This document shows positions 4,001 through 21,845 of a stretch of DNA of 64,000 nucleotides, in pieces. The stretch comes from Paracoccus ravus (GTDB lineage: Bacteria > Pseudomonadota > Alphaproteobacteria > Rhodobacterales > Rhodobacteraceae): assembly GCF_004522175.1 (NCBI RefSeq), contig NZ_SDEB01000005.1:1-64000 (forward strand). The letters run 5' to 3'. The position numbers were made by a program, and so were the translations under genes. The notes below the pieces were generated by a model, which saw only the letters and a program-made list of their open reading frames with translations, was not told the DNA's origin and did not search any database. Position 1 is the stretch's first letter; every line of letters starts with the position of its first letter.

Positions 4001-5125
4001 TCACACCTTGCGTCGTGGAGAGGGCCGCTTGCGGGAAGTGCGTGACTTGGGGCCGTCCAACTCGTCAAGCGTTCGAGGCGGTGCAGGCGGAAAGAGGCTA
4101 TGAAGCCGGTCAGTGACCTCCAGCACATCACAGATCGCCAGCAGACTCGCGAGGGTAACCTCGCCCGAGGTTTCAAAACGCCGAATGGCCGACAACGGCA
4201 CCCCGCTGCGTTCCGCCAGGTCCTGCTGCGATAGATTGAAACCGAGCCGTCGCGCCCGCGCGCTTGTGGCCAGTTCGATTGCCGTCAGGGGCTCCTTCCG
4301 GAGCGGCCATTCCGGCTCAACCATCGTCAGGGCGCCAGCCCCATGCTCATCATCCTCGAACAGCGCGAAATTGACATTCATCATGTGAGCATCGGCCCGC
4401 AGAGCGACCAACTCATCCATCGAATCTCGCCACGATCCTGCAACGATCAGCAGCATTGCCGGAAACTGACGCGCTGATAATCCCAACCGCCCGAGCACGT
4501 CCATCAAGTAGCGGCGATGCAGTTTCTGACGCGATTGCTTGATCTGGATTGCCATGACGACCTGGCTCCCAACCATTACCAGGAGGTCTGCGCCACCATC
4601 CCCCGAGGAGCCTGCATCCTCGATCCTGGCATTCGCCCCGAAGCCAAGCACTTCAATGTTTTTTTGAAGATAGGAATGTACCGATCGTACGAAACGTTCC
4701 GCCTGCCAGAAACGCTCGTGCGCGGCGAGCCCACGACCGCCAGACTCCTGCTTCGCAGCTTCAAGCGCAGCCTTGAGTTCGTCGCGGTTGATTTGGCCAG
4801 AAATAAACCTCGGCTGCATGCGTCTGGCTAAGCCACTGTCAATGCGCCAAATTTGGGCGAACAAAAGCAGGCTCACCATACTCACAGGCGAAACTTCCGT
4901 CACATCCGTTTCCGGGAAGTGCGCTGCGTACCAACGTTCTGCCGCGAGAGGGTTTCGTAGGCTTGCCACCTGAACGCCGCGCAATCGCGCGACTTCACGC
5001 AGCAGGTCGTCGGGATTCTCGAAACCGTAGCCCGAGCAGTTCCGCATCGCAATGCGGAGGGCTTTGGCAAATGTGAGCCAATCGGTTTTGGAGGCAATCT
5101 CGCGAAGGGAGGCGTCTGAAATCAT
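4001..5125 (-). CDS. Nuclease-like protein fused to a C-terminal XRE DNA-binding domain
   Basis: The 374-aa product has three parts. Residues 1-150 are of unknown fold. Residues about 150-260 carry a PD-(D/E)xK-like pattern: Gly-Gly-Ala-Asp180 in a strand, then Ile-Gln194-Ile-Lys196 in the next strand, as in Mrr-like or restriction-type nucleases. Residues about 286-345 are an XRE/Cro-type helix-turn-helix (LSQQDLAERSGVPLSAIRRFE), followed by a basic tail. The gene is divergent from tnsA, and the 77-bp gap holds a palindrome at 5171-5185. Autoregulation and control of the transposition genes is therefore a reasonable inference. Whether the nuclease domain is active, and whether the gene is cargo or part of the transposon machinery, is unknown. 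Confidence 0.7.
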   Translation of the reverse strand: MISDASLREIASKTDWLTFAKALRIAMRNCSGYGFENPDDLLREVARLRGVQVASLRNPLAAERWYAAHFPETDVTEVSPVSMVSLLLFAQIWRIDSGLARRMQPRFISGQINRDELKAALEAAKQESGGRGLAAHERFWQAERFVRSVHSYLQKNIEVLGFGANARIEDAGSSGDGGADLLVMVGSQVVMAIQIKQSRQKLHRRYLMDVLGRLGLSARQFPAMLLIVAGSWRDSMDELVALRADAHMMNVNFALFEDDEHGAGALTMVEPEWPLRKEPLTAIELATSARARRLGFNLSQQDLAERSGVPLSAIRRFETSGEVTLASLLAICDVLEVTDRLHSLFPPAPPRTLDELDGPKSRTSRKRPSPRRKV

Positions 5126-5202: not shown

Positions 5203-5922
5203 ATGCGCATCGACAGCAAGGCAGAGCCGGTGGCCCGGCGCATCCATAAGCGCGGCATGAAGAAGAAGGCGCATTGGGTTGCGCCTCCTAAATGCAAGGG
5301 GCTGATCCAGACCGAGAGCCGGCTGGAGGCGAGTGCCGCCATCGCCATCGGTCTCGATCCAAGGGTCACATCCTTCCGCCCCCAGCCCGCGAGTTTCGAC
5401 CTCGCCACCGGTCGAAAATATCGCTCTGCCAAAGCCCTTTCGGAGGCGACCAGCGGTAAAGGGCGATGCTACACGCCCGATTTCGAGGTCAAGCTGGGCA
5501 GGGCCATCGTCTATGTCGAAGTGAAGCACTCCGCCCTGATCAGGAAGTACCCCGACACGCTCCTGCTCCCACGGATGTTCGCAGGCTTCGGCTGGAAACT
5601 CATCCTGGTCGATGAAAACCTGCTCTGCGATACCTTCGTGCAGAATACGCGGCTGATATGGCCATGGTACGGTCACGCTGTCGCCGACCAGACCGTCCAG
5701 GCGCTTCAGGAGGAGTGCCGAGAGCCGCGGAGCTTCGCGTCTCTCACCGAGGGCGGAAGAACTCAGGCGGACATCCTTTCCCTGCTCGCCAGCGGCCATT
5801 TGGCAACCGATCTTGCCGGTGCGCGATTGAACTCGAGATCCCTCATCATCACAGCCGCCGGCGTTGCAACGGATCTGATGCGCCTGCCCTTCCCGATCAC
5901 TGCGGAGAAGCCCCATGCTTGA
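5203..5922 (+). CDS. tnsA: TnsA-like transposon endonuclease
   Basis: TnsA makes the 5'-strand cuts that let Tn7-like elements move by cut-and-paste together with TnsB. The 239-aa protein shows the TnsA nuclease core: Glu38 in TESRLEA, Asp93 in YTPDF and Glu106-x-Lys108 in YVEVKH, matching the E...D...(E/Q)xK restriction-type active site. It is slightly shorter than Tn7 TnsA (273 aa). The start is the ATG at 5203 after a GGGTGG stretch. The 3' end overlaps tnsB by 8 bases. The second half (after about 115) corresponds to the DNA- and TnsC-binding region but is not diagnostic. Confidence 0.85.
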   Translation: MRIDSKAEPVARRIHKRGMKKKAHWVAPPKCKGLIQTESRLEASAAIAIGLDPRVTSFRPQPASFDLATGRKYRSAKALSEATSGKGRCYTPDFEVKLGRAIVYVEVKHSALIRKYPDTLLLPRMFAGFGWKLILVDENLLCDTFVQNTRLIWPWYGHAVADQTVQALQEECREPRSFASLTEGGRTQADILSLLASGHLATDLAGARLNSRSLIITAAGVATDLMRLPFPITAEKPHA

Positions 5923-7855
5923 TTTTGACGGAACTTCCCAAGCACCGATGGCCTTCGTCGCGCGCAAGGGTGCCCACGTCCTTCTGCGCTGTGGCGATGG
6001 AGCGGAGGTCGAGGTCGAGTACGATCGATACCGCGAGATGATCGCCAATGGCCAAGCCCTTCGGCCAGGTGACGACGGGAACTCTCCCCCGATCCATGAC
6101 GAGCATGCTCGCAACTACCAAGCAATGATCCAGCATGCGATCACCCGCGACAAGCAACTTCGCCGCAGCGGTAGAAGTGCAAAGGAAGCGCATCGGGTCC
6201 TCAGCGAAGAATTGAGATCTCATCCAGTTTTTGCAGCCTATGCGCCGGCCATGTTCAGCCTCCGGACACTGCAAAACTGGAAGACGAAACTTGCCCGCGA
6301 GGGCAAGGCGGCGCTCACGCCCAAATTTGCCGAACGTGGCAATCGGGGCGCCCGATACGACGAGCTTTACAGGAAGACTGTCTTCGATGTCCTTGAGCGA
6401 AACTACTTGCAGAATGACAGGCTGGCGATCTGGAATATCGTGCCCCAGGTAAGACGAAAATACGAGGTGGCCTGCAAGGCAGAAGGCCGGGAACCCGGCA
6501 ATTGCGATCGACGCTGTCTCGAAGCGGTCATTGCGACGATCCGTGCCGATGACGTCGTCTCGGCAAGGCACGATTCGCAGACCAGCAAGAAGTTCCTCCT
6601 GCAATCCCAGTTCTATCACCGCGTCCATGCGCCGCTGGACCTTGTCGAAATCGACTGCACGAAGGGCGATATCCATCTCGCCGATGCGAAGGGAAATTGT
6701 GTCGGCAGGCCTTTCATCTGTGCAGCGGTATGTGCGGCGACCGGATTTCCTTGGATCCGCGCCTCACTCGACGCACCGAACGAGACCCTTGTCATCCAGA
6801 CGATCAGGGATGTGATGACAATGCGCGGCTGCGAATACTTTGATTTTCACGAAATACCACCAGAGAATCGCATTGAAGCATTCGGCACGCCGAAGGTCAT
6901 TTCTACCGATCAGGGAAGTGAAAACAGCGGCAGCAATCTCAACGTCGTCGTTGAGAACGCCCATATCGAATTTGCCAAGAACATACCCGGATGCCCGGAG
7001 AAGAAGCCCTTCGTCGAGCGGTTTTTCCGGGAGTTGAACCGATTCCTGCAGACCCTCCCTGGATCCAGCCACTCAAAGGATCTGCCCAACCGGCAGCGAA
7101 CCGCCAAGGGCATGAAGGAGGCCACGCTCACGCTGGACGAGTTGCAGAAGATGCTCGTCCTCTGGGTCTATAACAGCTACATCCACAAGATCCGGCGACT
7201 GATCCATTCCCCTCTTCGGCAGGCCGAATCGCCAGCTGCAAGCTGGAATCGGCTGGCCAGGGAGGTGACGTATCCCAGTTCACCGCGCGACCTTGACGCG
7301 ATCTTCATGATCGAGTCCAGAAATCGAAAGGTGCATTCCTACGGTATCGCAGTCGGCGGCATCCATTATCACTCCTCGGAGTTACGTGACCTCATCGGCC
7401 AGCACGGCATCGGGACCAACGTCACGATCCTCCATGACCCCACGAATTCCGGCCACATCATGGTCAAGGACCCTTTGACCGGACAGTACTTCGCGGTTCC
7501 AGCAAAGGCCGATGAGGCTACCGGTGTCAGCTTGGAGGAAGGCAAGGCGCGCCGCAAAGCCGATCCTGCCGCGAAAGAGAAAGATCGCCAGGCACGTGAG
7601 TATGCCGCTGATCTCGCGGACAATGGCCAGAACATGGCCAAAGCCCGCGGCAAGGCCAAACCTTCCCGGGCTCTCAAGGACATCCGCAAAGCCGAGCAAC
7701 GCCGGCAGCGGCACAAGGAAATCAACGCGACCCGGAATTCGGGGCAGGATTCATCCAAGACTTCCGCGATCGACAAGGCGAACCGATCTACCCCGAGACT
7801 GCCGATCCGCCTGCAGAGCAGCCTGCCGGAGATCGACAAGGTCCATCAGGAGTAG
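5915..7855 (+). CDS. tnsB: TnsB-like DDE transposase
   Basis: TnsB binds the transposon ends, cuts the 3' strands and joins them to the target. The 646-aa protein has N-terminal helical DNA-binding regions (about 60-220) and a retroviral-integrase-type core. Its catalytic acids are visible as Asp247 (VEIDCT), Asp332 (STDQGSEN) and Glu368 (PFVERFF). A beta-barrel region and a long Lys/Arg-rich tail (about 520-646) follow; in Tn7 the TnsB tail contacts TnsC. It is translated from an ATG inside the end of tnsA, implying coupled translation. Confidence 0.9.
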   Translation: MLDFDGTSQAPMAFVARKGAHVLLRCGDGAEVEVEYDRYREMIANGQALRPGDDGNSPPIHDEHARNYQAMIQHAITRDKQLRRSGRSAKEAHRVLSEELRSHPVFAAYAPAMFSLRTLQNWKTKLAREGKAALTPKFAERGNRGARYDELYRKTVFDVLERNYLQNDRLAIWNIVPQVRRKYEVACKAEGREPGNCDRRCLEAVIATIRADDVVSARHDSQTSKKFLLQSQFYHRVHAPLDLVEIDCTKGDIHLADAKGNCVGRPFICAAVCAATGFPWIRASLDAPNETLVIQTIRDVMTMRGCEYFDFHEIPPENRIEAFGTPKVISTDQGSENSGSNLNVVVENAHIEFAKNIPGCPEKKPFVERFFRELNRFLQTLPGSSHSKDLPNRQRTAKGMKEATLTLDELQKMLVLWVYNSYIHKIRRLIHSPLRQAESPAASWNRLAREVTYPSSPRDLDAIFMIESRNRKVHSYGIAVGGIHYHSSELRDLIGQHGIGTNVTILHDPTNSGHIMVKDPLTGQYFAVPAKADEATGVSLEEGKARRKADPAAKEKDRQAREYAADLADNGQNMAKARGKAKPSRALKDIRKAEQRRQRHKEINATRNSGQDSSKTSAIDKANRSTPRLPIRLQSSLPEIDKVHQE

Positions 7856-7858
7856 AAA

Positions 7859-8818
7859 ATGAAGACTGCGAACCCCACCCCGCTCATCCGCCATGGCGCA
7901 TTTTGCGACGCGGAACAGAGTATCCGGGCGCATCTCGCCACGTGCCCTCCCGGGCAAGGCAGCATCATCCCCTTGCTGGGCCCGACGCGCGTCGGCAAGT
8001 CCGAGCTTATTCACCGCCTGATCGAGACGTCGCCACAAGGAAAATCTCTGGCGCCGCAGAGGACGTTCGCCCGAGTCGATGTGCCCGCATCTGTCACTGC
8101 GCGGGGGCTCTATGCCGCCATCCTCTCTGCCCTCGGCTACAAGAGCGGTTTCTCGGAGCGGACGAACGACCTTCGCGACAGGCTGTTTCGCGTGATCGAC
8201 AGCTTTGGCATCGAGGTCATCGCACTCGATGAATGCAGCCGCATCGTCGAAAAGGCATCGAAGCTTGGCATCGGCGCCGCCGCGGACTTGTTCAGGTCCA
8301 TCGCCGATGGAACCGGGGCTTCGCTGATCCTGTCCGGGCTTCCGAAGTTTCAGGCCGCCATCGATCATAATGAGCAACTGCGTGACCGGGCCACCAGCAC
8401 CGTGCTGTTCAAGCCCTATGACTGGCAGAACGACGATGATCGAGACGCGTTCGTGGGCACCGTACAGGTGGTGCTGAACAATCTCGAAACTTCCGGCATC
8501 CGGGTAGACCTCGATGTCGAGGACTTCGTCCGTCGTCTGTACGGCGCCTCGGGCGGGAGGATCCCGGTCATCACCAGGCTTGTGGGCGCCAGCCTGGCCG
8601 ACACCCCGTCAGCGATCCGCCTTGCCGATCTGCGCCGTGGTGCCGCGGCGATGCAACAATCGGGAATTCGGGTCTCATCCTTCTTCGAGTCCAATGAGCC
8701 GGACGAGACAGATCTCGTCCGATCCTACGCAATCGTCATGCACGAGGCAGGTCTGAATTTCGAGCTGTCGACGGATGTCGGGTTGAAGGCCTATTGGGAC
8801 ATGGAGATGTCGTCGTGA
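7859..8818 (+). CDS. tnsC: TnsC/TniB-like AAA+ transposition regulator
   Basis: TnsC is an ATPase that links the target-site protein to the transposase and forms filaments on DNA in studied Tn7-like systems. The 319-aa product has a Walker A motif at 41-48 (GPTRVGKS) and Walker B at about 121-126 (IALDEC), followed by sensor-like segments. It is much shorter than Tn7 TnsC (555 aa) and nearer in size to TniB proteins. It starts 3 bases after the tnsB stop, with an AGGAG site inside the end of tnsB. Confidence 0.85.
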   Translation: MKTANPTPLIRHGAFCDAEQSIRAHLATCPPGQGSIIPLLGPTRVGKSELIHRLIETSPQGKSLAPQRTFARVDVPASVTARGLYAAILSALGYKSGFSERTNDLRDRLFRVIDSFGIEVIALDECSRIVEKASKLGIGAAADLFRSIADGTGASLILSGLPKFQAAIDHNEQLRDRATSTVLFKPYDWQNDDDRDAFVGTVQVVLNNLETSGIRVDLDVEDFVRRLYGASGGRIPVITRLVGASLADTPSAIRLADLRRGAAAMQQSGIRVSSFFESNEPDETDLVRSYAIVMHEAGLNFELSTDVGLKAYWDMEMSS

Positions 8819-10602
8819 AGCTGGTGACCACGCCCCTGCCCGAAGAGAGCCTGGACGGCTTCCTGCGCCGCCACGCTGAAGCCGAGTTCCGGGATGAAGT
8901 CGGGGATCTGCTGCGCGGCGTCGGCTTCGACTTTGGCCGGCCCCTGATTGAGCGCGCCTCTGAACTCGAGCAACTGCTAGACCTGCCCGCCGGAACACTC
9001 GATCCCATGCTGCCAAGGGCATCTTCAAAAATCCCCGGGCTGACATGGGGCTTCCAGCGGCGGCATTCGGCCCCGGTCTGTCCCGAATGCCTTGCCAGCG
9101 GAAATCCCCGCCACCAGGCATGGCAGCATTGCTTCGCCACCGCCTGTCCCGAGCATGCGCTGGTTCTCGTGGATTTCTGCCCGATCTGCGCCGAGACGAT
9201 GCAGCCCGGTCATGGCGGCCACGCAACCTGCCGCTGTGGGCACTATCTGACCCACTGCAGGCGCGAAGCCGCCAGTGACTGGGAGGTCGCGGTTTCCGCG
9301 TTGATCGCAGGGCAGATGCATCCGAGCCGGGGCAGCCTGCCGCCCTCGCTCACCTTCCAAACGCCGTCCGATATCAGTTCCTTCCTGCTCTTCCTCATCG
9401 CAAGCCAGACCGCACCCGTCACCGGGAAACATGGCAAGATCGTCCTGCCGAAGACTGTCGAGCAGGCCCGCGGCCAACTGCGCAGCATCGAGCCTCTGCT
9501 AAGCAACTGGCCCGAGGCATTTGAGCAGGATGTCTCCTTGCGCCTGCGACAGAGTGATCAGGAAAAAGCCTCGGCCCCTGCACGGCTGGGCAAGTGGTAT
9601 CAGCGCTTCATGCGCTTCCGGCATCCGGCCTACCGGGTGTTCCATCAAGCCTTCGAGCAGGTCGTTCGCCAGGAATTCGACGGCAGGTATTTTGGTGCTC
9701 CCCAAGCCTCGCGCTCCGTGGACAGGCGCTGGATCAGCGCTGCCGAGGCAGGGCGGCGGATCGGTATCAGGGCCGGACGCATCGTCGAGGCAGTCGCGGC
9801 AGGGGCCATCGCAGGCAGAACCTTCACGAGTGGCTTCGGACACCGCCACACGACCATCGATCTGGAAACCGTCGAGTCCATCATCACCAACCGCCAGCGC
9901 TTCATCGACAAGACCCACGCACGGGATTTCCTCGGCATTTCGCGCAAACAATACGATCTGCTTGCCGAGGCCGACATATTTGCCGCGAGCCTACCGAAGG
10001 AGCTGCCGCCGCTGGTCGATGGGCCACATGACTTCGATGCGCTCGAGGCCATGGTGGCTGGCATCGCGAAGAACGCGACCCCCGTCCCCGGAAAGACGAT
10101 CGCGCTGCAAGACCTCAACCTGCGCTACACGACCGATCGGTCGGGTCTCACCTCCGTCTTTCAGGCCATCGCCGAGGGCGCCCTTCCCCCGTGCCCTCAC
10201 AGCATCTCCGGCGCATTCGGCAAGTTCCGGTTCCCGCTCGAGGAAGTTCAGATGCTGCTGGGCAAGGCCAGACGCGGCACCGGGCTGACCGTTCAAGAAC
10301 TTGCACGGCAGACCGGCTGGAAGGAGCAATGTATTTCGGGTTGGTGCCAGCAGGGTCTGATCGAGCACGAGACCACAGAACATGCTGGCGGGCTGAAGCG
10401 CGTGATCAATACCGCCGCACTTGCCCGCTTCCAGATGGCCTACGTCCCGGTATCCGTCCTCGCGCAGCAGGCCGACACATCATCGCGCAGTATGCTAAAG
10501 AAGCTCGCGGGAAAGGAGATCCAGACGACGGGCGCAACTCAGGATGGAACCGCCTGGCGCGGCCATCTGGTCGCGATGCCCGATCTGGCGAAACTCATCT
10601 AA
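8815..10602 (+). CDS. tniQ: TniQ/TnsD-like target-selection protein
   Basis: TniQ-family proteins choose the insertion site. The frame opens at ATG 8794, but GTG 8815 overlaps the tnsC stop as GTGA, has a GGAGA site just upstream and gives the usual short lead into the LPEESLDGFLRR motif, so I use it (595 aa). A zinc-binding block with CPEC, CPEH, CPIC and CRCGH motifs lies at about residues 89-143. The C-terminal 300 residues contain at least three small helix-turn-helix-like segments, two of them MerR/excisionase-like (for example AEAGRRIGI...GRIVEAV and TVQELARQTGW). This suggests sequence-specific recognition of an attachment site, as in TnsD, rather than the short TniQ of CRISPR-guided elements. 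Confidence 0.8.
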   Translation: MKLVTTPLPEESLDGFLRRHAEAEFRDEVGDLLRGVGFDFGRPLIERASELEQLLDLPAGTLDPMLPRASSKIPGLTWGFQRRHSAPVCPECLASGNPRHQAWQHCFATACPEHALVLVDFCPICAETMQPGHGGHATCRCGHYLTHCRREAASDWEVAVSALIAGQMHPSRGSLPPSLTFQTPSDISSFLLFLIASQTAPVTGKHGKIVLPKTVEQARGQLRSIEPLLSNWPEAFEQDVSLRLRQSDQEKASAPARLGKWYQRFMRFRHPAYRVFHQAFEQVVRQEFDGRYFGAPQASRSVDRRWISAAEAGRRIGIRAGRIVEAVAAGAIAGRTFTSGFGHRHTTIDLETVESIITNRQRFIDKTHARDFLGISRKQYDLLAEADIFAASLPKELPPLVDGPHDFDALEAMVAGIAKNATPVPGKTIALQDLNLRYTTDRSGLTSVFQAIAEGALPPCPHSISGAFGKFRFPLEEVQMLLGKARRGTGLTVQELARQTGWKEQCISGWCQQGLIEHETTEHAGGLKRVINTAALARFQMAYVPVSVLAQQADTSSRSMLKKLAGKEIQTTGATQDGTAWRGHLVAMPDLAKLI

Positions 10603-10621: not shown

Positions 10622-10771
10622 TTAGACGTCGTCGCCGTCGCCGCTCATTCTCATGAACTCCTCCAGCATCTCGCGACGGTGACGATTTTCCCGAGACAGG
10701 CCGACTAGAAGACGCGCGAGCGGCCAACAGCAAAGCACCGTTACGGTGATCGCGGCGAGGATGTTGAGCAT
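10622..10771 (-). CDS. Small single-pass membrane protein, unknown function
   Basis: A 49-aa product starts at ATG 10771 with a good GGGGAG ribosome site at 10776-10783. Residues about 2-24 form one hydrophobic membrane segment, followed by a charged cytoplasmic-type tail ending in a run of Asp and Gly. It is encoded opposite to tniQ and divergent from the antitoxin-like gene at 10805. The frame could open further upstream (60 codons), but the internal start has the better ribosome site. No family recognised. Confidence 0.5.
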   Translation of the reverse strand: MLNILAAITVTVLCCWPLARLLVGLSRENRHRREMLEEFMRMSGDGDDV

Positions 10772-10804
10772 GGCGACTCCCCTTGTGCTGTGCCAGTATA
10801 GCAC

Positions 10805-11059
10805 ATGACCCTGTCAGACGCAGCTGATCGCTCCATCACGCATCGCCGCGAGCTCATAGCCAAGCTCGGCGAAATGCTCCCGGGCTTGGAACTTGTCTTG
10901 ATGGCGTATGAGGAATACGACCCATGGGTGATCCTCGACATCTTGCTCGCGCCCGACAGCGCCTTGGGTGGACGAACATTGCTCGAAGCAATTCAAGAGG
11001 GCGATGAGCGAGCCATTGCCCGGCATATCGCCCAAGCGAGGGGCGACGGGTTCGCTTAA
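10805..11059 (+). pseudogene. Antitoxin-like small protein, copy 1 (C-terminus lost by frameshift)
   Basis: This 84-codon frame is a close copy of the first part of the gene at 11342 (shared ITHRRELIAKLGEMLPGL and LLAPDSALGG). The LLAPDSALGGRTLLEAI...GD segment resembles the toxin-binding end of MbcA/ParS-type antitoxins, a motif-level inference. After its stop at 11057-11059, another frame at about 11070-11160 encodes a tail (KIGILGGM...EDPEPAGSDPASP) matching the C-terminus of copy 2. The gene was therefore once longer and has been frameshifted near 11055. No clear ribosome site precedes the ATG. Confidence 0.5.
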
Positions 11060-11159: not shown

Positions 11160-11310
11160 TCCGATCCACTTACGCCCGACGTCAGCGGCACACGGCAAAG
11201 CGGGTATTCAACAGGTTGCGAGAGGACCAAGGCTTCACCGGCGGCTACATGATCATCAAGGGCTATGTCCGGGAGCGAAAACAACGCAGCCAGAAGTGCG
11301 TTCAGCGTGG
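11160..11310 (+). pseudogene. IS21-family IstA transposase remnant
   Basis: A frame of about 45 codons reads TYARRQRHTAKRVFNRLRED followed by GFTGGYMIIKGYVRE, the conserved N-terminal helix-turn-helix and GFxGGYxxxKxYVRE motif of IS21 IstA. Nothing of the catalytic domain or of IstB is present. The remnant runs in frame into the antitoxin-like gene copy 2, so the long open frame starting at 11216 is an accidental fusion. Confidence 0.7.
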
Positions 11311-11341
11311 CGACTCGCCTTGCCCTGTGAGACTATGGCAC

Positions 11342-11800
11342 ATGACCCAGTCAAAAGCCGCTGATAGCTCCATCACACATCGCCGCGAGCTCATAGCAAA
11401 GCTTGGCGAGATGCTTCCGGGCCTCGACCTTGTTTTGATAGCGCATGAAGACGACGATCCATGGGTGATCCTGAATATCCTGCTCGCCCCCGACAGCGCG
11501 CTGGGTGGGCGATCATTGTTCCAAGCGATCCAAGAGGGCGATGCCAGAGCCATTGCCCGCCATGTTGCCGAAGCGAAAGGGTACGGGCCCGAGACCAAAC
11601 CGAAAACTGCGCGGGTCAAATTCGGAATTCTGGCCGGAATCGTGCCGCCGCCGCCCACCGCGTTTTTCGAGGACCTTGATCCCGCAGATTTTGCCCAACC
11701 TAGTCCGGATCGTTCAATCCCAGACCCCAACTCAAAAATTGCTGCAAAAGCAAAGTCGTCAGTTCGACCGCGGGCGAAGAAATCAACTGAGCAAAACTAA
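11342..11800 (+). CDS. Antitoxin-like small protein, copy 2 (full length)
   Basis: The 152-aa product starts at ATG 11342, the position equivalent to the copy-1 start at 10805. Residues about 10-80 share the duplicated domain, including WVILNILLAPDSALGG, which resembles the C-terminal domain of MbcA/ParS-type antitoxins but without their helix-turn-helix. A Pro/Asp-rich segment (GILAGIVPPPP...FFEDLDPADF) and a Lys/Arg-rich tail follow. No toxin gene is adjacent. It lies just inside the right-hand repeats and so is probably cargo of the Tn7-like element. The function is inferred from weak similarity. Confidence 0.5.
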   Translation: MTQSKAADSSITHRRELIAKLGEMLPGLDLVLIAHEDDDPWVILNILLAPDSALGGRSLFQAIQEGDARAIARHVAEAKGYGPETKPKTARVKFGILAGIVPPPPTAFFEDLDPADFAQPSPDRSIPDPNSKIAAKAKSSVRPRAKKSTEQN

Positions 11801-11835: not shown

Positions 11836-11933
11836 ACGCGCAACTTTATGCGCTAAGTCCGCGCAACTTTATGTGCGAAGTAGGGTGGCTAAGTCATTGA
11901 TTTTACGTAAACGACGCGCAACTTTACGCGCTA
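11836..11933 (+). repeat. Three end repeats, candidate TnsB-binding sites
   Basis: Three near-identical repeats share the core CGCGCAACTTTA followed by a GC-rich flank: 11836-11855 (ACGCGCAACTTTATGCGCTA), 11860-11878 and 11914-11933. Cores are spaced 23 and 55 bp apart and all point the same way. GCGC on both sides gives each a partly palindromic outline. Spaced repeats at element ends are what TnsB binds in Tn7. Identity as TnsB sites is inferred from location and pattern. Confidence 0.65.
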
Positions 11934-11941
11934 CCCTTCAG

Positions 11942-12802
11942 TTCCGCCGCAACAATTATATCGAGAAGGCGGAACTGCCCTCGCGCCTTGGCTTCGAGGC
12001 CTCGGGCCGGGTGACGGCACTTGGCGAAGGGGTCGGCGGTTTCCAGATCGGCGACAGGGTCTGCGTCGTACCCGGCGCGCCGCTCGGGGCCCATGGCACC
12101 TGCGCGGACTGGGTCAATGTTCCGGCCTCGCGCGTCCTGCCTTGCCCGGCAGGGCTTAACGACGCAGAGGCCGCCGCGCTCTGGATGTCCTATGTCACGC
12201 CCTACGGCGCGCTGATCGAGATCTGCCGGATCCGCGCAGGCCAGCATGTGCTGATCACCGCGGCAAACAGCACTGTGGGACTGGCCGCGATCCAGATTGC
12301 CCGCGCGGTCGGAGCTTTCCCGATCGCGACCGTCCTCAGCGAAAGCCTGCGCCAGCCGGTGCTGGAAGCCGGGGCCGGGGCGGTGATCGTGATGGAAAGT
12401 GAAGATCTGGCCCAAGGCCTCGCCTGGGCTTCTCCGGTTGGCATCGACGCGGCCTTCGATGCAGTCGGCGGCCCTCAGGTCGCACAGATCGCCGAAGCGA
12501 TGCGCCCGCGTGGAAGCATCGTCATTCATGGCGCGCTGAGCCCGGAGCCGACGCCTTTCCCGCTGAAGCTCGCCCTGCGCAAGAACCTGTCCCTGCGCGG
12601 CTATTACTACACCGAGGTGACCGACGACCCGGAGGCCCTGAGCCGGGCGCAGGACTTCCTCAACAAGGCCATCACCGCAGGTCATGTGGTCCCGAAAATC
12701 GATCGCAGCTTCGGTCTGGAGAATATCGCCGAGGCCCATGCCTATCTGGAAAGCGGGCGACATTTTGGGAAAGTCGTGGTCCTAACGCAGCCAGGAAAAT
12801 GA
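11942..12802 (+). pseudogene. Zinc-type alcohol dehydrogenase/quinone oxidoreductase family gene, 5' end lost
   Basis: The frame encodes most of an MDR-superfamily NAD(P)H oxidoreductase. It enters at FRRNNYIE, which normally lies about 50 residues into these proteins. It continues through the GFEASG and GDRV region, the cofactor-binding strand (HVLITAANSTVGLAAIQIARAVGA) and the usual C-terminal GRHFGKVVV. The expected N-terminal catalytic-domain strands are missing because the Tn7-like element end at about 11938 abuts the gene. A start codon in the transposon end (11873) could still give a product, but it would lack the normal N-terminus. Confidence 0.75.
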
Positions 12803-14510: not shown

Positions 14511-14940
14511 CGTTGACCTTGGTCAACGGGGACCGGCCGCTATGCGCGGTCACGAACGTCAGGGAAAACTTGTTCTCGCGGATCGGCAGTGTCTCACGCG
14601 GCGCCATCCACCGGGTGATATTCAAAATTCCCCTGGATCACTCGCCTCTGGGAAATTTGAATCAGAAGCCAGCCAGAGCGCGAATCCCGCGCGTGCTCGG
14701 GCGTGACTCAGGATTGACCACTTTTCTGGAGGCAGGCCAGATCAAGTGCGAGATTTGTGCAAAAACACCATTTCTCGACAATCTTGCCACATCGGCAAAA
14801 GATTAATTTGCACGGGCAAAGATTAACGCTTGGATTTCGCGCGGACGGGTAGTTTTCTTCTTCGTAGCTGGCGCGAATTGCCGCCTGGCATTCTGGATCG
14901 CCCGGTCGACGGATCGGCGCATTGCCCTCTGGAGAAGAAA
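14511..14940. other. Intergenic leader region before the outer-membrane protein gene
   Basis: I see no gene in this 430-bp stretch. It contains a short direct repeat (GCAAAAGATTAA and GCAAAGATTAA, about 14793-14827) in an AT-richer patch. It probably holds the promoter and a long leader for the gene at 14941, but no clear -35/-10 pair stands out. Confidence 0.35.
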
Positions 14941-15657
14941 ATGAGCATGAAGAAGATCACTGTAATGGCGACCTCCCTCACTCTCGGGGCGAGTGCCGCC
15001 GCCTATGCTGGTGGTTACACGCCGCCTGTGACAGAGCCCATCATAGCCCCCGTCATCGAAGAGCCGATCGCCGATTGGTCCGGCGGCTATTTCGGCGGTA
15101 CGCTGGGCTATGCATTTGGCGGATCGGATGAGGTCGGCATCAGCGACAGCACGGACACGCTCCTGGGCAATATCGGCGAAGTCGAGGTCAATGGTGCCAA
15201 TATCGGCCTGCGGGTCGGTTATCGCTGGCAGCGCGACAAATGGACCTTTGGACCGGAGCTTGGCTATGAATTCGCCGATATCCGGGATGAGACCAGCGCG
15301 GATATCGTCGTCGACGGCGATTCCGTGAACATTGGCGCGGATGCCAAGGTCGAGAATATCCTGGCCCTGCGCTTCAAGACCGGCTACATCGTCCGCCCCG
15401 ACACCATGGTCTATGGTATCGCCGGCTGGGCGCGGGCGAGCGTCGATTACGAGATCTACGACACGGATGTCAGCTATGACGCCGATGGCTACATCGTCGG
15501 TCTGGGCGTGGAACGGATGATCAACGACCGGATGTCCGTCACAGGCGAATGGGAATATGCCGATTTCGGCAAGGAAACTCTCGAGGCCGAGGGCCTGAGC
15601 ACCCGGGCCACGATGGATTATCACAACTTCAAGATCGGTGTGAACTACAAGTTCTGA
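14941..15657 (+). CDS. Outer-membrane beta-barrel protein (OmpA/Omp25-like porin family)
   Basis: The 238-aa product begins with a Sec signal peptide (MSMKKITVMATSLTLGASAAAYAGG; cleavage probably after AYA). It continues with alternating amphipathic strands, a WSGGYFGGTLGYAFGG opening typical of the Brucella Omp25/Omp31-like family and a terminal Phe (NYKF) recognised by the BAM machinery. The ATG at 14941 has GGAGAAG just before it; the frame is open further upstream without a ribosome site. Likely a single-gene unit ended by the terminator at 15679-15702. Transport or adhesion role unknown. Confidence 0.75.
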   Translation: MSMKKITVMATSLTLGASAAAYAGGYTPPVTEPIIAPVIEEPIADWSGGYFGGTLGYAFGGSDEVGISDSTDTLLGNIGEVEVNGANIGLRVGYRWQRDKWTFGPELGYEFADIRDETSADIVVDGDSVNIGADAKVENILALRFKTGYIVRPDTMVYGIAGWARASVDYEIYDTDVSYDADGYIVGLGVERMINDRMSVTGEWEYADFGKETLEAEGLSTRATMDYHNFKIGVNYKF

Positions 15658-15666
15658 TCGGTCTGA

Positions 15667-16371
15667 TCACCGCAAGCCGGGGCGCCATTGGCGCCCCTTT
15701 TTCGTGTTCCAACCGGACGCATCCCCCCGGATCGGCAAGGCATGGATCTGTCGGCCGCAAGCCAGCGCCAGCCCCTCGGGCACCAGCCGCCGCAATGCCG
15801 GGTCGTCATAGGGCAAGCCGCCGGTGTAGGCCCCGAAGGCGGGAAGGATAAGGTGCTGATCTCCGACAAGAAATGTTCGTTTCCTTTCACCTGCAAGGCG
15901 TAGAACGGGATGGAAATGGCCCGATATGTCCGGACCATCGCCCGAAACCGCCTCATGTCGCAGCAGGACAGCGCCGAGGTGAAACACCGCCTCGGCCTCA
16001 CCCGGATGCCCCTCCGGGCAGGACGGGTCATGGTTGCCGCAAAGCCAGAGCCAGTCCCGCCCATGGGCCAATCGGCCAAGGGCGTGACGGATGATCGGAT
16101 CCGCCTGGCGGCCCGCAAGATCGTCGTCGAACCCGTCGCCCAGGCTGACGATTCGCAAGGGATCAAGCGCGGCGACCTCCTGGCCCAGCCGATCCAGCGT
16201 GGCGATGCTTTCATAGGGCGGCAGCAAGGGACCGCCGCGCCGCGCCATGCGCTCGGACTTGCCCAGATGCAGATCGGCGACCAGCAGCCAGCGGCCTTCG
16301 GGCCACCACAGCGCGCCCGAAACCCGTGCCTCAAGGCGCAGGCCGTGAAAATCAAAGCGCCAGCCAGTCAT
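15667..16371 (-). CDS. pdeM: Ligase-associated DNA damage response endonuclease PdeM
   Basis: This 234-aa calcineurin-like phosphoesterase is known for its association with an ATP-dependent DNA ligase in alphaproteobacterial and other genomes. Metal-binding motifs are visible: VADLHLGK (about 31-38), LGDGFDD, CGNHD (about 110-114) and GHFHP. The start overlaps the end of the helicase gene by 4 bases (ATGA type), making it the last gene of the four-gene repair operon. Its final codons form the terminator stem of the convergent gene. Confidence 0.85.
   Translation of the reverse strand: MTGWRFDFHGLRLEARVSGALWWPEGRWLLVADLHLGKSERMARRGGPLLPPYESIATLDRLGQEVAALDPLRIVSLGDGFDDDLAGRQADPIIRHALGRLAHGRDWLWLCGNHDPSCPEGHPGEAEAVFHLGAVLLRHEAVSGDGPDISGHFHPVLRLAGERKRTFLVGDQHLILPAFGAYTGGLPYDDPALRRLVPEGLALACGRQIHALPIRGDASGWNTKKGRQWRPGLR
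15679..15702 (+). terminator. Intrinsic terminator after the outer-membrane protein gene
   Basis: GGGGCGCC-ATT-GGCGCCCC is a perfect 8-bp stem followed by five T. It lies inside the last codons of the convergent gene pdeM. Confidence 0.85.
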
Positions 16372-18767
16372 GCAATCTCCATCAATCCTGCCGCACGCAT
16401 CAGGGTTTCGGCCTCGATCCGGGCCAGCCTTTCGCGACCCTCGCCCCGGATCGGGACCTTGCCGACCTCGATCAGCAGCGGCGCGGCGAGGGGCGAGACC
16501 CGCTCAAGCATGAGGTGTTCGCGACGTGGGGAACGCGCGAGCATTTCCTCGATCCGGCCGAAATCGACAAGGCCGCGCCCGGCTTCCTCGGCGGTCACCC
16601 GCAGCATGAGGTGATCGGGGTCGTATTTCCTGAGCGTATCGTAAAGAATATCGCTGGAAAACGTCGCCTGCCGCCCCGATTTCCGCAGCCCCGGCATGTT
16701 ACGCTGGATCAGGCCCGCCACGATCGCGACATTGCGGAAGGTCCGCTTCATCACCGCATTCCCGGCCAGCCAATCCCCCAGACCTGCGCGCAGTCTTGCC
16801 GTCTCGAGCAGCGGCGCGGGATCGAGCAGCGGATCCATCGACCAGATGAGCAGCGCGTAATCGGTTGAAAGAAAGCCCAAGGGGCCAAGCCCCTCCTGCT
16901 CCATTTCGCGGGTCAGAAGCAGTCCGAGGGTCTGCAAGGCATTGCGCCCGGCAAAGCCGTAAAGCGCGAAATGCCACAATCCCGCATAGGGAAAGCTTTC
17001 CGACAATAGCAGCCCCGGCTCGGGCAGTCGCGAGATCTGGCTTTGCAGGGACAACCAGTCGCGGGTCTGGACCGGCAGGCTTGCATGTCGCGCCGGATCC
17101 CCGATCAGCGCCAGAACGCGATGGGCAAGCTGGGTCGACATGGCCAGCTTAACGCCGGAATAGACCGCGATCTTGGGCTGGGCATTGGGCTGGGGCGAGA
17201 CCTCGATCACCATCTCGCGCATCGCATCCATCCTGACCACCCGACCGCCGATCAGGAAACTGTCGCCCGGCGAGAGGCTGGCCGCAAACGCCTCTTCGAC
17301 CTCGCCCAGAGGTGCGCCGCCGCGGCCACGCAGCCTGACACGGACCATCTCGGCCTCGGTGATCGTGCCGATATTCATCCGCAGCAGCCGGGCGGCGCGT
17401 GGGTCGCGCAATTGCCACAGCCCGTCGCGCAGCATCAGCCGCTGCCAGCGGTCATAGGCCCGCAGCGCGTAGCCTCCGGTCGCCGCGAAATCGAGGCAGG
17501 CATCGAAATCCGCGCGGGCGAGCCCGCGATAAGGCCCCGCACTCGTGAACTCGGAGTAGAGACTGTCGGCGTCGAACGGCCCGGCACAGGCGGTCAAAAG
17601 GATATGCTGGCACAGCACGTCCAAAGGCCCCGGCCCGCGCGGCTCGCCGTCCAGGTCGCGCGCCCGCACGGCCTCAAGCGCGGCCACGCATTCGATCTGC
17701 TCGAACCGGTTCGCCGGCACGATCCGCGCCTTTGACGGCGCATTGTAGCGATGATTGGCGCGACCGATGCGCTGGACGAGCCGTTTCACGTTCTTGGGCG
17801 CGCCAACCTGAATGACAAGGTCGACCGCGCCCCAATCGATCCCCAGATCAAGGCTGCCGGTGGCGACGACCGCGCGTAACTCGCCCGCGGCCATCGCCGC
17901 CTCGACCCGTGCGCGGCTTTCACGGGCCAGACTGCCATGGTGGAGGCCGATCGGCAGGTTCTCGTCATTCTCGGCCCAGAGCGCCTGAAAGAACAATTCG
18001 GCCTGCGCGCGGGTGTTGATGAAAATGATCGTGGTGCGGGCCTGCCGGACCGCGTTCAGGACTTCGGGGATCGCGTAATGCCCCCCTCCCCCGGCCCAGG
18101 GCGCGGGCCGCGCCGTCGGCAGCATGGCGATATCGGGATCGGGGCCGGGATCGGCGAGGATGACCTCGACCGGGGCCTCTCCGGCCATGAAACGCGCCAG
18201 CGATGCGGGATCCTCGACGGTGGCCGAGAGTCCCGTCACCCGCAGCCCGGGGGAAAGCCTGCGCAGCCGCGCCAGGCACAGCATCAGCTGATCACCGCGC
18301 TTGCTTTCGGCCAGCGCGTGAAGTTCATCCAGCACCACCCGCCGCAGCCCGCCAAATATCTTGGGCGCTTCGGGATAGGACAGCATCAGGGCAAGGCTTT
18401 CCGGCGTCGTGAGCAGGATCTCGGGCGGATCGGTCCTCTGGCGGCGTCGCTGCGTCTGGCCGGTATCCCCGGTTCGGTCCTCGATCCGGATCGACAGACC
18501 AAGATCCGCGACGGGACGGGCCAGATTGCGGCCGATATCCGCCGTCAGCGCCTTGAGCGGCGAGACATAGAGCGTATGCACCGAGCCCCTTGTCGTGGCC
18601 TGGCGCAGTTCCACCAGCGAGGGCAGGAAACCGGCCAATGTCTTGCCCCCGCCCGTGGGCGCTATGAGCAGCCGATCCCCTTCGGCTGCCAGCAGGGCCA
18701 ATTGATGCGGATGCGGTTCCCAGCCTTGCCGGGAAAACCAGTCCTGAAATGCGGCCGGAAGCGTCAC
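16368..18767 (-). CDS. Ligase-associated DEXH-box helicase (Lhr-like)
   Basis: The 799-aa superfamily 2 helicase has Walker A APTGGGKT (about 34-42), a DELH box (VVLDELHALAES, about 145), motif III SAT (LSATVED) and motif VI QRIGRANH (about 330). A long C-terminal Lhr-type region follows. It probably unwinds or remodels damaged DNA for the neighbouring ligase and nucleases. Start and stop overlap with the flanking genes by 4 bases each, showing a translationally coupled operon. Confidence 0.85.
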   Translation of the reverse strand: MTLPAAFQDWFSRQGWEPHPHQLALLAAEGDRLLIAPTGGGKTLAGFLPSLVELRQATTRGSVHTLYVSPLKALTADIGRNLARPVADLGLSIRIEDRTGDTGQTQRRRQRTDPPEILLTTPESLALMLSYPEAPKIFGGLRRVVLDELHALAESKRGDQLMLCLARLRRLSPGLRVTGLSATVEDPASLARFMAGEAPVEVILADPGPDPDIAMLPTARPAPWAGGGGHYAIPEVLNAVRQARTTIIFINTRAQAELFFQALWAENDENLPIGLHHGSLARESRARVEAAMAAGELRAVVATGSLDLGIDWGAVDLVIQVGAPKNVKRLVQRIGRANHRYNAPSKARIVPANRFEQIECVAALEAVRARDLDGEPRGPGPLDVLCQHILLTACAGPFDADSLYSEFTSAGPYRGLARADFDACLDFAATGGYALRAYDRWQRLMLRDGLWQLRDPRAARLLRMNIGTITEAEMVRVRLRGRGGAPLGEVEEAFAASLSPGDSFLIGGRVVRMDAMREMVIEVSPQPNAQPKIAVYSGVKLAMSTQLAHRVLALIGDPARHASLPVQTRDWLSLQSQISRLPEPGLLLSESFPYAGLWHFALYGFAGRNALQTLGLLLTREMEQEGLGPLGFLSTDYALLIWSMDPLLDPAPLLETARLRAGLGDWLAGNAVMKRTFRNVAIVAGLIQRNMPGLRKSGRQATFSSDILYDTLRKYDPDHLMLRVTAEEAGRGLVDFGRIEEMLARSPRREHLMLERVSPLAAPLLIEVGKVPIRGEGRERLARIEAETLMRAAGLMEIA

Positions 18768-20308
18768 AGCATCGCCTCCAGCGTGGCAAGGTGGTCGGCC
18801 TCGGCGGCGGGCTTGTCCCAGCGGATGCGACTGATGCGCGGAAACCGCATCGCCACGCCGGATTTATGGCGGGTCGAACGGTTCAGACCTTCAAAGGCGA
18901 CCTCGACCACCAATTTTGGCGAAAGCTGGCGCACCGGGCCGAAACGCTCGGTTGTGTTGGCGCGGACAAAGCGGTCCAGCTCGCGCAGTTCCGCATCGGT
19001 GAAGCCGAAATAGGCCTTGCCGACGGGAACCAGTTCCGCGCCATGCCACAGGCCAAAGGTGAAGTCCGAGTGGAAACCCGACCGCTTGCCATGCCCGCGC
19101 TGCGCATAAAGCAGCACCGCATCGACGACCATCGGGTCGCGCTTCCACTTGAACCAGGGACCGCGCGGCCGACCGGCCAGATAGGGGCTGTCGCGGCGCT
19201 TGATCATGACGCCCTCGATCACCGTGGCGGGCGGATCGGCGCGCAGCGCGGCAAGCTCGTCCCAGGTCGTGAAATCGAGCAATGGCGAGACGTCTATCCT
19301 TGCGCCCAGATCGAGGTTTTCCAGCAGGTTCCGCCGGATATGCAGCGCTTCGGGCCGCAGATCCCGCCCCTCCCACAGCAGGACATCGTAAAGCCGCAGG
19401 CCTGCGGGATGGCTGGCCAGCAGCGCCTTGCCCACCGCCTTGCGGTTCAACCGCTTTTGCAGATCGCCGAATGGCGCGATCTCGGCATCGCGGCGGACCA
19501 GCAGTTCGCCGTCCAGCGTGCCTTCGAAATCCATCGCCTCGATCACATCGGGAAAGGCATCGGAAATATCCTCGCCGGTGCGCGAATAGAGCCGCCGCAC
19601 GCCCCCCTCACTCGCCGCCTGAACGCGGATGCCGTCCCATTTCCATTCCGCGAAATAATCCTGTGGAGAAAGCGCGGCCAGTTCCTGCGGATCCGTCGCC
19701 GTGGAAAGCATCACGGGACGAAAGGGCGCAAGGGCGGCGGAATCGGGTCTCGCGCCGCCCGCGATCCAGCCGAACAAGGGACCGTAAGGCGGGGCGAGCC
19801 CGTGCCAGATCTCTTCGATCTCGGTGACCGACGGACCGCCCATCCCGGCAAGCGCCATCCGCGCCATGCGCGCCGAGACCCCCACCCGCAGGTTTCCGGT
19901 CGCAAGCTTGAGAAAGGCCAGACGCTCGGACGGGCCGAGCCGGTCGAGCATGGCCGCGATCACTCCGGGCAAGGCCGCCTTGCCCGTGCCCTGCAAGAGG
20001 GCGACGGCCGTGGACAAAGGCGGATCGTCCTGCGCCCCTTCGGGCCAGATCAGCGCGATCGTTTCAGCCAGATCGCCCACGAAATCATAGCTCAACGCCA
20101 GAAGCTGGCTGTCCACCCGCTCTGCCGCCAAGCCGCGCAGCAGGCTGGGGGTGACGGTGCGCAATTGCAGGTCTCCGGTCAGCGCCGCGAGCGCCCAGCC
20201 CCGGTCGGGATCGGGGATCCGCTCCAGATAATGCTGCAAAAGCTGCAATTTCGCGTTGCGCGCAGGGGTGAAGGCCAGCCGTTCGAGCAATGCGGCAAAG
20301 GCTTTCAT
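18764..20308 (-). CDS. Ligase-associated (cisplatin damage response) ATP-dependent DNA ligase
   Basis: The 514-aa enzyme seals DNA nicks using ATP. The nucleotidyl-lysine motif is EWKWDGIRVQ, around residue 225. Later motifs include EGVMIKRRDSPY (motif IV, about 400) and WFKWKRDP (motif V). The N-terminal 200 residues match the DNA-binding domain of this group. It is distinct from the essential NAD-dependent LigA and from LigD. Coupled by 4-base overlaps to the exonuclease gene before it and the helicase gene after it. Confidence 0.9.
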   Translation of the reverse strand: MKAFAALLERLAFTPARNAKLQLLQHYLERIPDPDRGWALAALTGDLQLRTVTPSLLRGLAAERVDSQLLALSYDFVGDLAETIALIWPEGAQDDPPLSTAVALLQGTGKAALPGVIAAMLDRLGPSERLAFLKLATGNLRVGVSARMARMALAGMGGPSVTEIEEIWHGLAPPYGPLFGWIAGGARPDSAALAPFRPVMLSTATDPQELAALSPQDYFAEWKWDGIRVQAASEGGVRRLYSRTGEDISDAFPDVIEAMDFEGTLDGELLVRRDAEIAPFGDLQKRLNRKAVGKALLASHPAGLRLYDVLLWEGRDLRPEALHIRRNLLENLDLGARIDVSPLLDFTTWDELAALRADPPATVIEGVMIKRRDSPYLAGRPRGPWFKWKRDPMVVDAVLLYAQRGHGKRSGFHSDFTFGLWHGAELVPVGKAYFGFTDAELRELDRFVRANTTERFGPVRQLSPKLVVEVAFEGLNRSTRHKSGVAMRFPRISRIRWDKPAAEADHLATLEAML

Positions 20309-21294: not shown

Positions 21295-21324
21295 CTTTCC
21301 AAGGTCCAGAGCATGTCATGCAAA

Positions 21325-21801
21325 TCAACCAGGCGCGACCAGCGGCCGCCCCTCGAAGATCGGTTCCATCGAGAAAACGCCCGTCACGCGCTCGAGGTCC
21401 ATGCCAATGATCAGACGTTTGTAAAGCGCGTCATAGCCGGCCATGCCCTGCGTCACGGCCTTGGCCATGTAATCCCATTCGCCGCCGATGCGATGGAATT
21501 CGATGATCTCGGGCTGGGCCTCGATCCGGGCGCGGAAACGTCTGGCCCAGGAATCGTCGTGATGCCGCGTGCGGATCATGATGAAGACGGTCAGGTCCAG
21601 GCCCAAGGCGGCCCCATCGACGACCGCGCGCCTGCCCTTCAGGATACCGGCCTCGGTCAACCGGCTCATGCGCCGCCAGCAGGCATTCTGCGACAACCCT
21701 ACGCGATCGGCCAGATCGCGCTGCGACAGATCGGCATCCTGCTGCAGAAGCGCCAATAGCTTGTTGTCAATTTCATCAAAATTCTGGGACTTGCTGCGCA
21801 T
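21325..21801 (-). CDS. Lrp/AsnC-family transcriptional regulator
   Basis: The 158-aa product has an N-terminal helix-turn-helix (LSQRDLADRVGLSQNACWRRMSRL) and a C-terminal RAM/ligand-binding domain ending in the usual VFSMEPIFEGR. I chose ATG 21801 because it starts the normal DEIDNKLLALL helix soon after. The open frame continues to 21831. It is divergent from the aminotransferase gene, which it probably controls, with a palindrome at 21833-21845 between them. Confidence 0.8.
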   Translation of the reverse strand: MRSKSQNFDEIDNKLLALLQQDADLSQRDLADRVGLSQNACWRRMSRLTEAGILKGRRAVVDGAALGLDLTVFIMIRTRHHDDSWARRFRARIEAQPEIIEFHRIGGEWDYMAKAVTQGMAGYDALYKRLIIGMDLERVTGVFSMEPIFEGRPLVAPG

Positions 21802-21832
21802 CTGACAACCATTTCTTGGAAAACCCTGCAAA

Positions 21833-21845
21833 AAGCAAAATGCTT
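21833..21845. promoter_or_regulatory. Palindrome in the Lrp/aminotransferase intergenic region
   Basis: AAGCA-AAA-TGCTT is a perfect 5-bp inverted repeat in AT-rich sequence, 31 bp upstream of the regulator start and 47 bp before the aminotransferase start. It is a plausible Lrp-family binding site; this is inferred from position and symmetry. Confidence 0.35.

What the first reader, a model, noticed from the sequence alone, without database searches (positions are those of the whole stretch)
5203..10602. Tn7-like transposition module in a Paracoccus-type genome
tnsA, tnsB, tnsC and a tniQ/tnsD-like gene are all intact, closely packed or overlapping, with catalytic residues preserved (TnsA E38/D93/K108, TnsB D247/D332/E368, TnsC Walker A and B). 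TnsC is short like TniB, yet TnsA is present, so the element sits between classical Tn7 and Tn5053-type elements. It may represent a poorly described branch.
Basis: partly seen in the sequence, partly recalled or inferred. Interest (0 to 1): 0.75.

Follow-up and report, generated by a model that had tools for sequence, protein, structure and literature searches.

The report
Transposon family homing beside gyrase gene
The genes are the transposition machinery of a Tn7-like jumping element whose relatives insert at the same spot, directly after the stop codon of the essential DNA gyrase B gene, a landing site I did not find described for this kind of element.

Summary
In detail: tnsA, tnsB, tnsC and tniQ are intact and overlapping or adjacent, with the named catalytic residues present. 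They belong to a Tn7-like family seen here in 24 further genomes, all Rhodobacterales by record title. The 21 TnsB rows that could be used form one clade (100/100) apart from the references. In 22 of these 24 genomes an element end starts exactly 5 bp past the gyrB stop, in one at 4 bp; in one the contig ends there. Eleven readable gyrB genes of other genomes lack it. Nine of 12 located distal ends repeat the same 5 bp. In the window's genome the gyrB-side end is on another contig and the distal end is at window 11940; in the nearest relative gyrB runs straight into the window's right flank. The window copy lacks a matching duplication and its outermost triplet is changed. TniQ looks like a TnsD-type selector with extra DNA-binding modules. 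'Between Tn7 and Tn5053' is not supported: TnsA with a short TnsC is common. Some elements at the site carry no transposase genes.

The parts
5203..5922 (+). tnsA, heteromeric transposase endonuclease subunit
   Evidence: ORF; E38/D93/K108 conserved 22 of 22; weak NCBIfam TnsA-like hit
5915..7855 (+). tnsB, DDE transposase
   Evidence: Mu-transpos_C; D247/D332/E368 conserved 20 of 20; nearest solved chain Tn6677 TnsB E 1.3e-38 with alignment A1
7859..8818 (+). tnsC / TniB-type AAA+ ATPase, 319 aa
   Evidence: TniB 9e-15; Walker A and B conserved 20 of 20
8794..10602 (+). tniQ/tnsD-type target selector, 602 aa: TniQ core (about residues 7-297) plus winged-helix modules (about 307-368 and 493-602, MerR-like)
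   Evidence: TniQ Pfam; AlphaFold2 model pLDDT 87, pTM 0.58; structural matches (the module matches are Z 5-7, weak by the tool's own note)
4001..5125 (-). gene transcribed away from tnsA: nuclease-like N-terminal part (motif read by eye, not a tool result) plus HTH_3; homologues found in 12 of 24 relatives, with a ParB_N domain instead in two
   Evidence: HTH_3 6e-8; tblastn; ParB_N in L089 and L104
88..2991 (-). cargo: large protein similar to PADLOC candidate defence protein PDC-M60A
   Evidence: E 1.4e-19, residues 484-940
10763..11050 (+). cargo: first copy of an 82% identical direct repeat (288 nt)
11300..11587 (+). cargo: second copy of the repeat, inside ORF 11216-11800; partial matches in L093 and L096
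11835..11855 (+). TnsB-type binding site, distal end, site 1
11858..11878 (+). TnsB-type binding site, distal end, site 2 (23 bp spacing)
11913..11933 (+). TnsB-type binding site, distal end, terminal site (55 bp spacing)
11917..11940 (-). distal terminal inverted repeat; last element base 11940; reads TGAAGGG inwards, where most relatives have TGTAGG
11941..12802 (+). flank: 5'-truncated zinc-type alcohol dehydrogenase/quinone oxidoreductase gene abutting the element end
   Evidence: Pfam; comparison with L047
12845..14099 (+). flank: IS3-family insertion sequence
   Evidence: inverted repeat I1, 77%; transposase hit
14773..30117 (+). sequence that directly follows gyrB in near relative G006: the old right flank of the attachment site
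   Evidence: blastn

Best explanation
The genes are the core of a cut-and-paste Tn7-like transposon of a Rhodobacterales family that homes to attgyrB. Proposed mechanism: TniQ (a TnsD-type selector) binds the conserved 3' coding end of gyrB through its C-terminal winged-helix modules and loads TnsC. TnsC brings TnsA+TnsB, bound to repeat arrays at the two ends. TnsA and TnsB cut the element free and join it into a 5-bp stagger directly after the gyrB stop codon, with the tnsA side facing gyrB. Shown by sequence: gene set and catalytic residues, end arrays, the fixed position after gyrB, 5-bp duplications in relatives, the same island position in the window's genome. Inferred: that TniQ is what reads gyrB, and every biochemical step. 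In this genome the gyrB-side end (contig C78) and the window's distal end most likely bound one element of at least 15.8 kb plus an assembly gap. Its distal flank was later rearranged, so whether it can still move is open.
For: gyrB identity: NCBIfam gyrB models above cut-off and parE models below it, own and G489 genes. Position: of 24 carriers, 21 have TGTAGG and 1 TGTACG exactly 5 bp past the stop, 1 has TGTAGG at 4 bp, 1 contig ends there; own genome 5 bp. For 17 of 24, equal contig lengths put gyrB on the tns contig, upstream of tnsA on the same strand. Controls: 0 of 11 readable gyrB genes of other genomes; family scan 30 of 394 genomes, with no hit of the reversed pattern, all 30 in gyrB. 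TSD: 9 of 12 located distal ends match exactly; G489 is a 25,138 bp element, TSD TCGCC, 22 of 26 terminal match. Same element in the window: C78 sites 19 bp apart as at gyrB-side ends of L088, L092, L095 and L097; window distal sites 23 and 55 bp apart as in L087, L104 and G489 (23, 55-56); G006 has gyrB joined to window 14773 onward. TniQ: core Z 15.5 to a solved TniQ (6lnd), Z 12.0 to a TnsD in complex with TnsC and DNA (8v32).
Against: The window copy has no matching duplication (TTGTT at gyrB, GTTCC at the distal end), its outermost triplet is TGA instead of TGT, and it abuts a truncated dehydrogenase gene, so its right side may not be an original insertion junction. The two ends lie on different contigs; the gap was not closed. 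For 7 of 24 carriers gyrB is on a different contig from tnsB. Decayed relative G204 has no gyrB within the 32 kb fetched. The distal ends were picked from all CCTACA-like words by the TnsB-like sequence beside them, not blindly. L106 matches in 4 of 5 bases and L099 is ambiguous. 5 of the 30 gyrB-adjacent ends show no TnsB-like site even at 3 mismatches. The winged-helix matches are weak (Z 5-7). No experiment ties TniQ to gyrB.
Confidence: 0.85

Rival explanations
1. Nested or tandem insertion: the gyrB-side end on C78 belongs to one element and the window's tns genes and distal end to a second one that jumped into a dehydrogenase gene (TSD GTTCC) inside older cargo; the missing ends lie in the assembly gap.
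For: The distal end abuts the dehydrogenase reading frame at ...TTCA|GTTCC, and the 5' part of that gene is not beside it. Tandem elements at the site are seen in relatives (G489, L103, L105). The two flanking 5-mers differ.
Against: Only one gyrB-type end and one distal-type end were found in the whole assembly; the pattern allowed 3 mismatches, so a more diverged end would be missed. No separate 5' fragment of the gene next to an element end was found, although the query was short and weak.
Confidence: 0.25
2. A Tn5053/Tn402-type element (TniA-TniB-TniQ) that gained a tnsA, as the first reader's 'in between' placement implies.
For: TnsC is TniB-like and short.
Against: TnsB lies outside the supported group that holds the Tn5053/Tn402 rows. 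Insertion is at gyrB with 5-bp TSD. TnsA with a short TnsC is common elsewhere.
Confidence: 0.04
3. A CRISPR-associated transposon remnant or relative whose gyrB site was chosen by a guide RNA, not by TniQ.
For: Nearest solved TnsB, TnsC and TniQ chains are type I-F3; I-F3 elements with a parE-targeting TniQ exist (PMC11406308, passages).
Against: TniQ carries a long extension with modelled DNA-binding modules, as a TnsD does. The distance to the gene is nearly constant over diverse members. PADLOC on 7 window and 9 relative proteins showed no Cas effector, only Cas-associated or weak type IV helicase models; not all cargo was scanned.
Confidence: 0.04

Closest known systems
Tn7 (glmS-homing, TnsABCDE)
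   Same: TnsA+TnsB+AAA+ TnsC+TnsD-type selector; homes just downstream of a conserved gene; repeated TnsB sites and 5-bp TSD (review passages); tnsA side faces the target gene (Tn7 orientation recalled)
   Different: Target is gyrB; insertion directly after the stop codon, whereas Tn7 inserts farther downstream (recalled); TnsC is 317-329 aa, not over 500; TnsB clade apart from the one Tn7-type reference, L150
Tn7017-type I-F3 elements with a parE-targeting TniQ (PMC11406308, passages seen)
   Same: Targets the neighbourhood of a type II topoisomerase B-subunit gene (parE is a gyrB paralogue) with a TniQ protein; I-F3 proteins are the nearest solved relatives
Tn6677 / PseCAST (I-F3 CAST)
   Same: Nearest solved TnsB (E 1.3e-38) and TnsC; I-F3 TniQ chains are the best TniQ hits; TnsC about 320 aa
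   Different: Separate TnsB clade; TniQ here is 602 aa, with an extension beyond the core; the TnsA profile found no solved chain at E 0.1
Tn6022 type (comM, TnsF, as described in PMC10293859 passages); L146 is a plasmid TnsABC-TniQ element with a further gene
   Same: TnsA, TnsB, short TnsC, TniQ in one operon
   Different: L146 is separate in the TnsB tree; different target. That L146 is a Tn6022 relative is my guess from gene order
Tn5053/Tn402 (TniABQ)
   Same: Short TniB-like ATPase
   Different: No TnsA annotated in L141 or L143; different TnsB clade; plasmid resolution sites as target (PMC11406308)

Membership tests
Tn7-like elements (broad use: TnsB+TnsC plus TnsA and/or TniQ, PMC11406308) | TnsB and TnsC with TnsA and/or TniQ | tested here: met
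   same order in 16 of 24 relatives, the others lacking a near-full-length copy of at least one gene
Tn7-like elements (broad use) | 5-bp target site duplication | tested here: met
   in relatives: 9 of 12 located distal ends exact, L106 4 of 5, L099 ambiguous; the window copy itself fails
Tn7-like elements (broad use) | arrays of TnsB sites at both ends, TGT/ACA termini | tested here: met
   (arrays in those members where the motif scan found them); window distal terminus is TGA
Tn7 sensu stricto | insertion downstream of glmS | tested here: not met
   inserted after gyrB
Tn7 sensu stricto | TnsE | not tested
   no TnsE model searched
Tn5053/Tn402 | TniA (TnsB) inside the Tn5053 clade, no TnsA | tested here: not met
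   tree; TnsA present
Tn6022 | insertion in comM | tested here: not met
   at gyrB
Tn6022 | TnsF | not tested
   no TnsF search made
CRISPR-associated transposons | cas genes and a guide array in the element | tested here: inconclusive
   PADLOC on 7 window and 9 relative proteins: no Cas effector, but a CAS-associated DEDDh model and a weak type IV RecD model; cargo not fully scanned, own element has an assembly gap
parE-targeting I-F3 branch (Tn7017) | insertion next to parE | tested here: not met
   target gene is gyrB: NCBIfam gyrB models above, parE models below cut-off
parE-targeting I-F3 branch (Tn7017) | TniQ homologous to the Tn7017 selector | not testable with these tools
   no Tn7017 sequence at hand

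The most novel reading that the evidence does not exclude
attgyrB is a previously undescribed Tn7-like homing hub of Rhodobacterales: one TnsABC-TniQ family reads the gyrB 3' end and also moves, in trans, satellite elements that keep only the matching ends and cargo (4-14 kb) at the same base, often stacked in tandem; the gene divergent from tnsA (nuclease-like with HTH or ParB parts) is a second regulator or target selector.
Probability: 0.3. Interest if true: 0.72.

Novelty: new variant of a known kind. Interest (0 to 1): 0.6.

Why it matters
Homing sites named in the review passages that I saw (PMC11406308) are few: glmS, parE, comM, yhiN and tRNA genes. A gyrB-reading selector with an exact and very short offset would add a new, structurally modelled target reader for a gene present in nearly all bacteria. 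It could serve for site-specific insertion in alphaproteobacteria, and it explains a recurrent island position: 30 of 394 family genomes carry the end there. Paralogous targets (gyrB here, parE in some CASTs) make it possible to ask how selectors switch targets.

Tried and rejected
Close relatives of TnsB were sought first in genome contigs with the single protein (none confirmed), in 125 genomes of the genus (besides own, only 23-33% homologues), in plasmids (listed rows 24-28%) and in viral contigs (none confirmed). A family sample (4 of 394, own included, at E 1e-25) and the alignment scan (30 loci, 24 of them counted as family) succeeded; a class sample found own only (1 of 385 at E 1e-30). 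TnsA and TniQ against plasmids gave no match and two weak matches. The far end of G489 came from a direct match to the gyrB tail and reading of the flank; a TSD search confirmed it. The same TSD search gave no convincing pair for G323 and G204; its window for G323 stopped short of gyrB, and G323 was resolved later as L102; G204 stays unresolved. Left out of the TnsB tree: L092, L099, L105 and L108 (TnsB broken or short) and L147 (short). L140 is annotated 'Tn7 TnsB' but groups with Tn402, so the only Tn7-type reference is L150, on a long branch. In the structure comparison, only residues 7-297 and 302-368 of TniQ were well covered.

Literature: searches for gyrB with Tn7-like, TniQ, TnsD, tnsB, Roseobacter or genomic island terms, for Rhodobacterales and for the parE selector listed no paper whose title or abstract start describes a gyrB attachment site. 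These were listings, partly capped; passages only were seen of PMC10293859, PMC8649781 and PMC11406308, where a word search for 'gyr' found nothing.
Full report
WHAT IS THERE. The four genes are at the stated coordinates and intact: TnsA 239 aa, TnsB 646 aa, TnsC 319 aa, TniQ 602 aa. Pfam finds Mu-transpos_C, TniB and TniQ; TnsA has no Pfam hit and only a weak NCBIfam one.

THE ENDS. Three copies of a 21-nt repeat lie at 11835-11933. In the genome, exact matches to a 14-nt core of it occur there and once on C78, where a second, near-exact copy follows; a looser scan (2 mismatches) gives 22 scattered hits, no more than its reversed control, and only these two places hold grouped copies. The sequence beside the C78 copies is the 3' end of gyrB. 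A 24-nt end pattern with up to 3 mismatches finds only these two ends in the genome (the window's at exactly 3 mismatches), and its reversed control finds none. The near relative G006 has gyrB followed, about 30 bp later, by sequence matching window 14773 onward; in five more of the seven genus genomes fetched, window sequence from 15.1-15.8 kb onward starts within about 2 kb of gyrB, and in the seventh (G008) the nearest match is window 23730. Both ends therefore flank one island at the gyrB/porin junction. The window starts at base 1 of its contig; read by eye, its first 84 bases encode what looks like the tail of an IS3-type transposase (translation), so a repeated IS probably caused the break (inference).

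THE FAMILY. TnsB relatives were found in 3 other genomes among 394 of the family and, with a 3-row alignment, in 24 records with Rhodobacterales titles (loci L086-L109; L110-L115 are weaker and fall outside the family in the tree). All four genes are near full length and in the same order in 16 of 24; the rest lack a near-full-length copy of at least one gene. In a 55-row tree the 21 family rows are one side of a branch with 100/100 support; the deep order among Tn7, CAST, Tn5053 and this family is unresolved. Two subclades exist; all nine rows of the window's subclade have the nuclease-like gene divergent from tnsA, and it also occurs, more diverged, in L096 and L101 of the other.

THE ATTACHMENT SITE. 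gyrB was located in all 24 carriers. The sequence after its stop codon reads NNNNN-TGTAGG in 21, NNNNN-TGTACG in 1, NNNN-TGTAGG in 1, and in 1 the contig ends after the five bases. The five bases differ between most genomes while the gyrB end is conserved. Control gyrB genes from 11 readable other genomes lack the end; two more could not be parsed. At the distal end the same five bases recur in 9 of 12 located ends (L087, L089, L091, L093, L102-L105, L107); L106 matches in 4 of 5, L099 is an ambiguous tandem junction, and the window does not match. These ends were picked from all CCTACA-like words by the TnsB-like sequence beside them, not blindly. Elements measured between gyrB and that distal end are about 15.6 to 30 kb (7, L106 with its imperfect TSD included, plus L089 at 25,138 bp); further ends inside them were not excluded. 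Site spacing: gyrB-side pairs are 19 bp apart in L088, L092, L095, L097 and C78 and 18 in L109; distal sites are 23 and 55-56 bp apart in the window, L087, L104 and G489, while the inner distal pair is 21 bp apart in L099, L102, L103, L106 and L107; the motif scan found no array in the other loci.

AN INDEPENDENT SCAN. A pattern for 'gyrB end, five bases, TGTAGG' hits 30 of 394 family genomes, own and G323 included; the reversed control columns show none. G489 is missed because its gyrB ends differently. All 30 are gyrB; 25 of 30 have at least one TnsB-like site at up to 3 mismatches next to the end, 5 have none. For 19 of these 30, chosen without own, G323 and 9 others (mostly at contig ends), the downstream stretch was fetched (4.4 to 20 kb): tns genes were seen in 1 of 19, and only partly (G429). 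Three of the 19 are closed elements without tns genes: G331 4.35 kb (GCTTT), G134 6.3 kb (CGGGG), G174 14.1 kb (CGGTT); G447 at 8.6 kb matches in 4 of 5 bases. The others may be decayed or longer than the stretch. Tandem stacking is seen in G489, L103 and L105 and probably L099.

HOW IT WORKS. The TniQ model (21 sequences, pLDDT 87, pTM 0.58) has a core that matches solved TniQ proteins (6lnd Z 15.5) and a TnsD in complex with TnsC and DNA (8v32 Z 12.0), followed by winged helices that resemble MerR-type regulators at about 307-368 (Z up to 7.2) and 493-602 (Z about 5); the tool warns that Z under 8 may mean only a common arrangement. [quoted passage not shown] The simplest reading is that TniQ reads the gyrB 3' coding end and TnsC sets the offset. 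That step, and activity of any copy, are inferred.

THE WINDOW COPY. Genes look active; the distal terminus reads TGAAGGG and the flank is a dehydrogenase gene missing its first codons. Either the right flank was rearranged after insertion (an adjacent deletion would start exactly at an element end; recalled from other transposons), or this copy is nested in older cargo. One element is favoured because only one pair of ends was found in the assembly.

CARGO. Window 88-2991 resembles the candidate defence protein PDC-M60A. The C78 side carries a sulfatase and a Crp-type regulator, cargo if the single-element reading holds. The G489 element carries an Argonaute-type gene (pAgo, E 5e-129) and genes with hits to candidate defence models such as MkoA and PDC-M26A.

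AGAINST THE READING. TSD and TGT fail in the window itself; the island is not closed; 7 of 24 carriers have gyrB on another contig; decayed G204 has no gyrB in 32 kb; literature coverage is partial (open-licence papers only, no supplements).

Noticed in passing
L187 (G331), L198 (G134), L202 (G174), L196 (G447): Transposase-less elements with family-type ends at the same gyrB site, 4.35, 6.3, 14.1 and 8.6 kb; TSD exact in three, 4 of 5 in the last. Possible satellites or deletion derivatives.
   Followed up: partly
window 4001-5125; L089:7345-9150; L104:7309-9144: Conserved gene divergent from tnsA: shared N-terminal part, C-terminal HTH_3 in the window, ParB_N in two relatives, neither in the four shorter ones tested.
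   Followed up: partly
L057:4114-4536 (= L089) and L090, L102, L106 downstream of tniQ: A small accessory ORF of about 140 aa follows tniQ in four members; the one tested has no Pfam hit.
   Followed up: no
L089:11942-12879: tnsC of Tropicimonas sp. IMCC34011 is split over two frames; broken gene, sequencing error or frameshift not decided.
   Followed up: no
window 10763-11050 and 11300-11587: Repeated 288-nt segment (82%) coding for small proteins; partial matches also in family loci L093 and L096.
   Followed up: no
window 53461-53613 (-) and 14170-14272 (-): Rfam hits just above gathering score: Ruegeria Cis2_sRNA, and an ALIL pseudoknot beside the IS3 element.
   Followed up: no
L140 (OW849366.1): A plasmid gene annotated 'Tn7 TnsB' groups with the Tn402 TniA row in the tree; likely misannotation.
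   Followed up: yes
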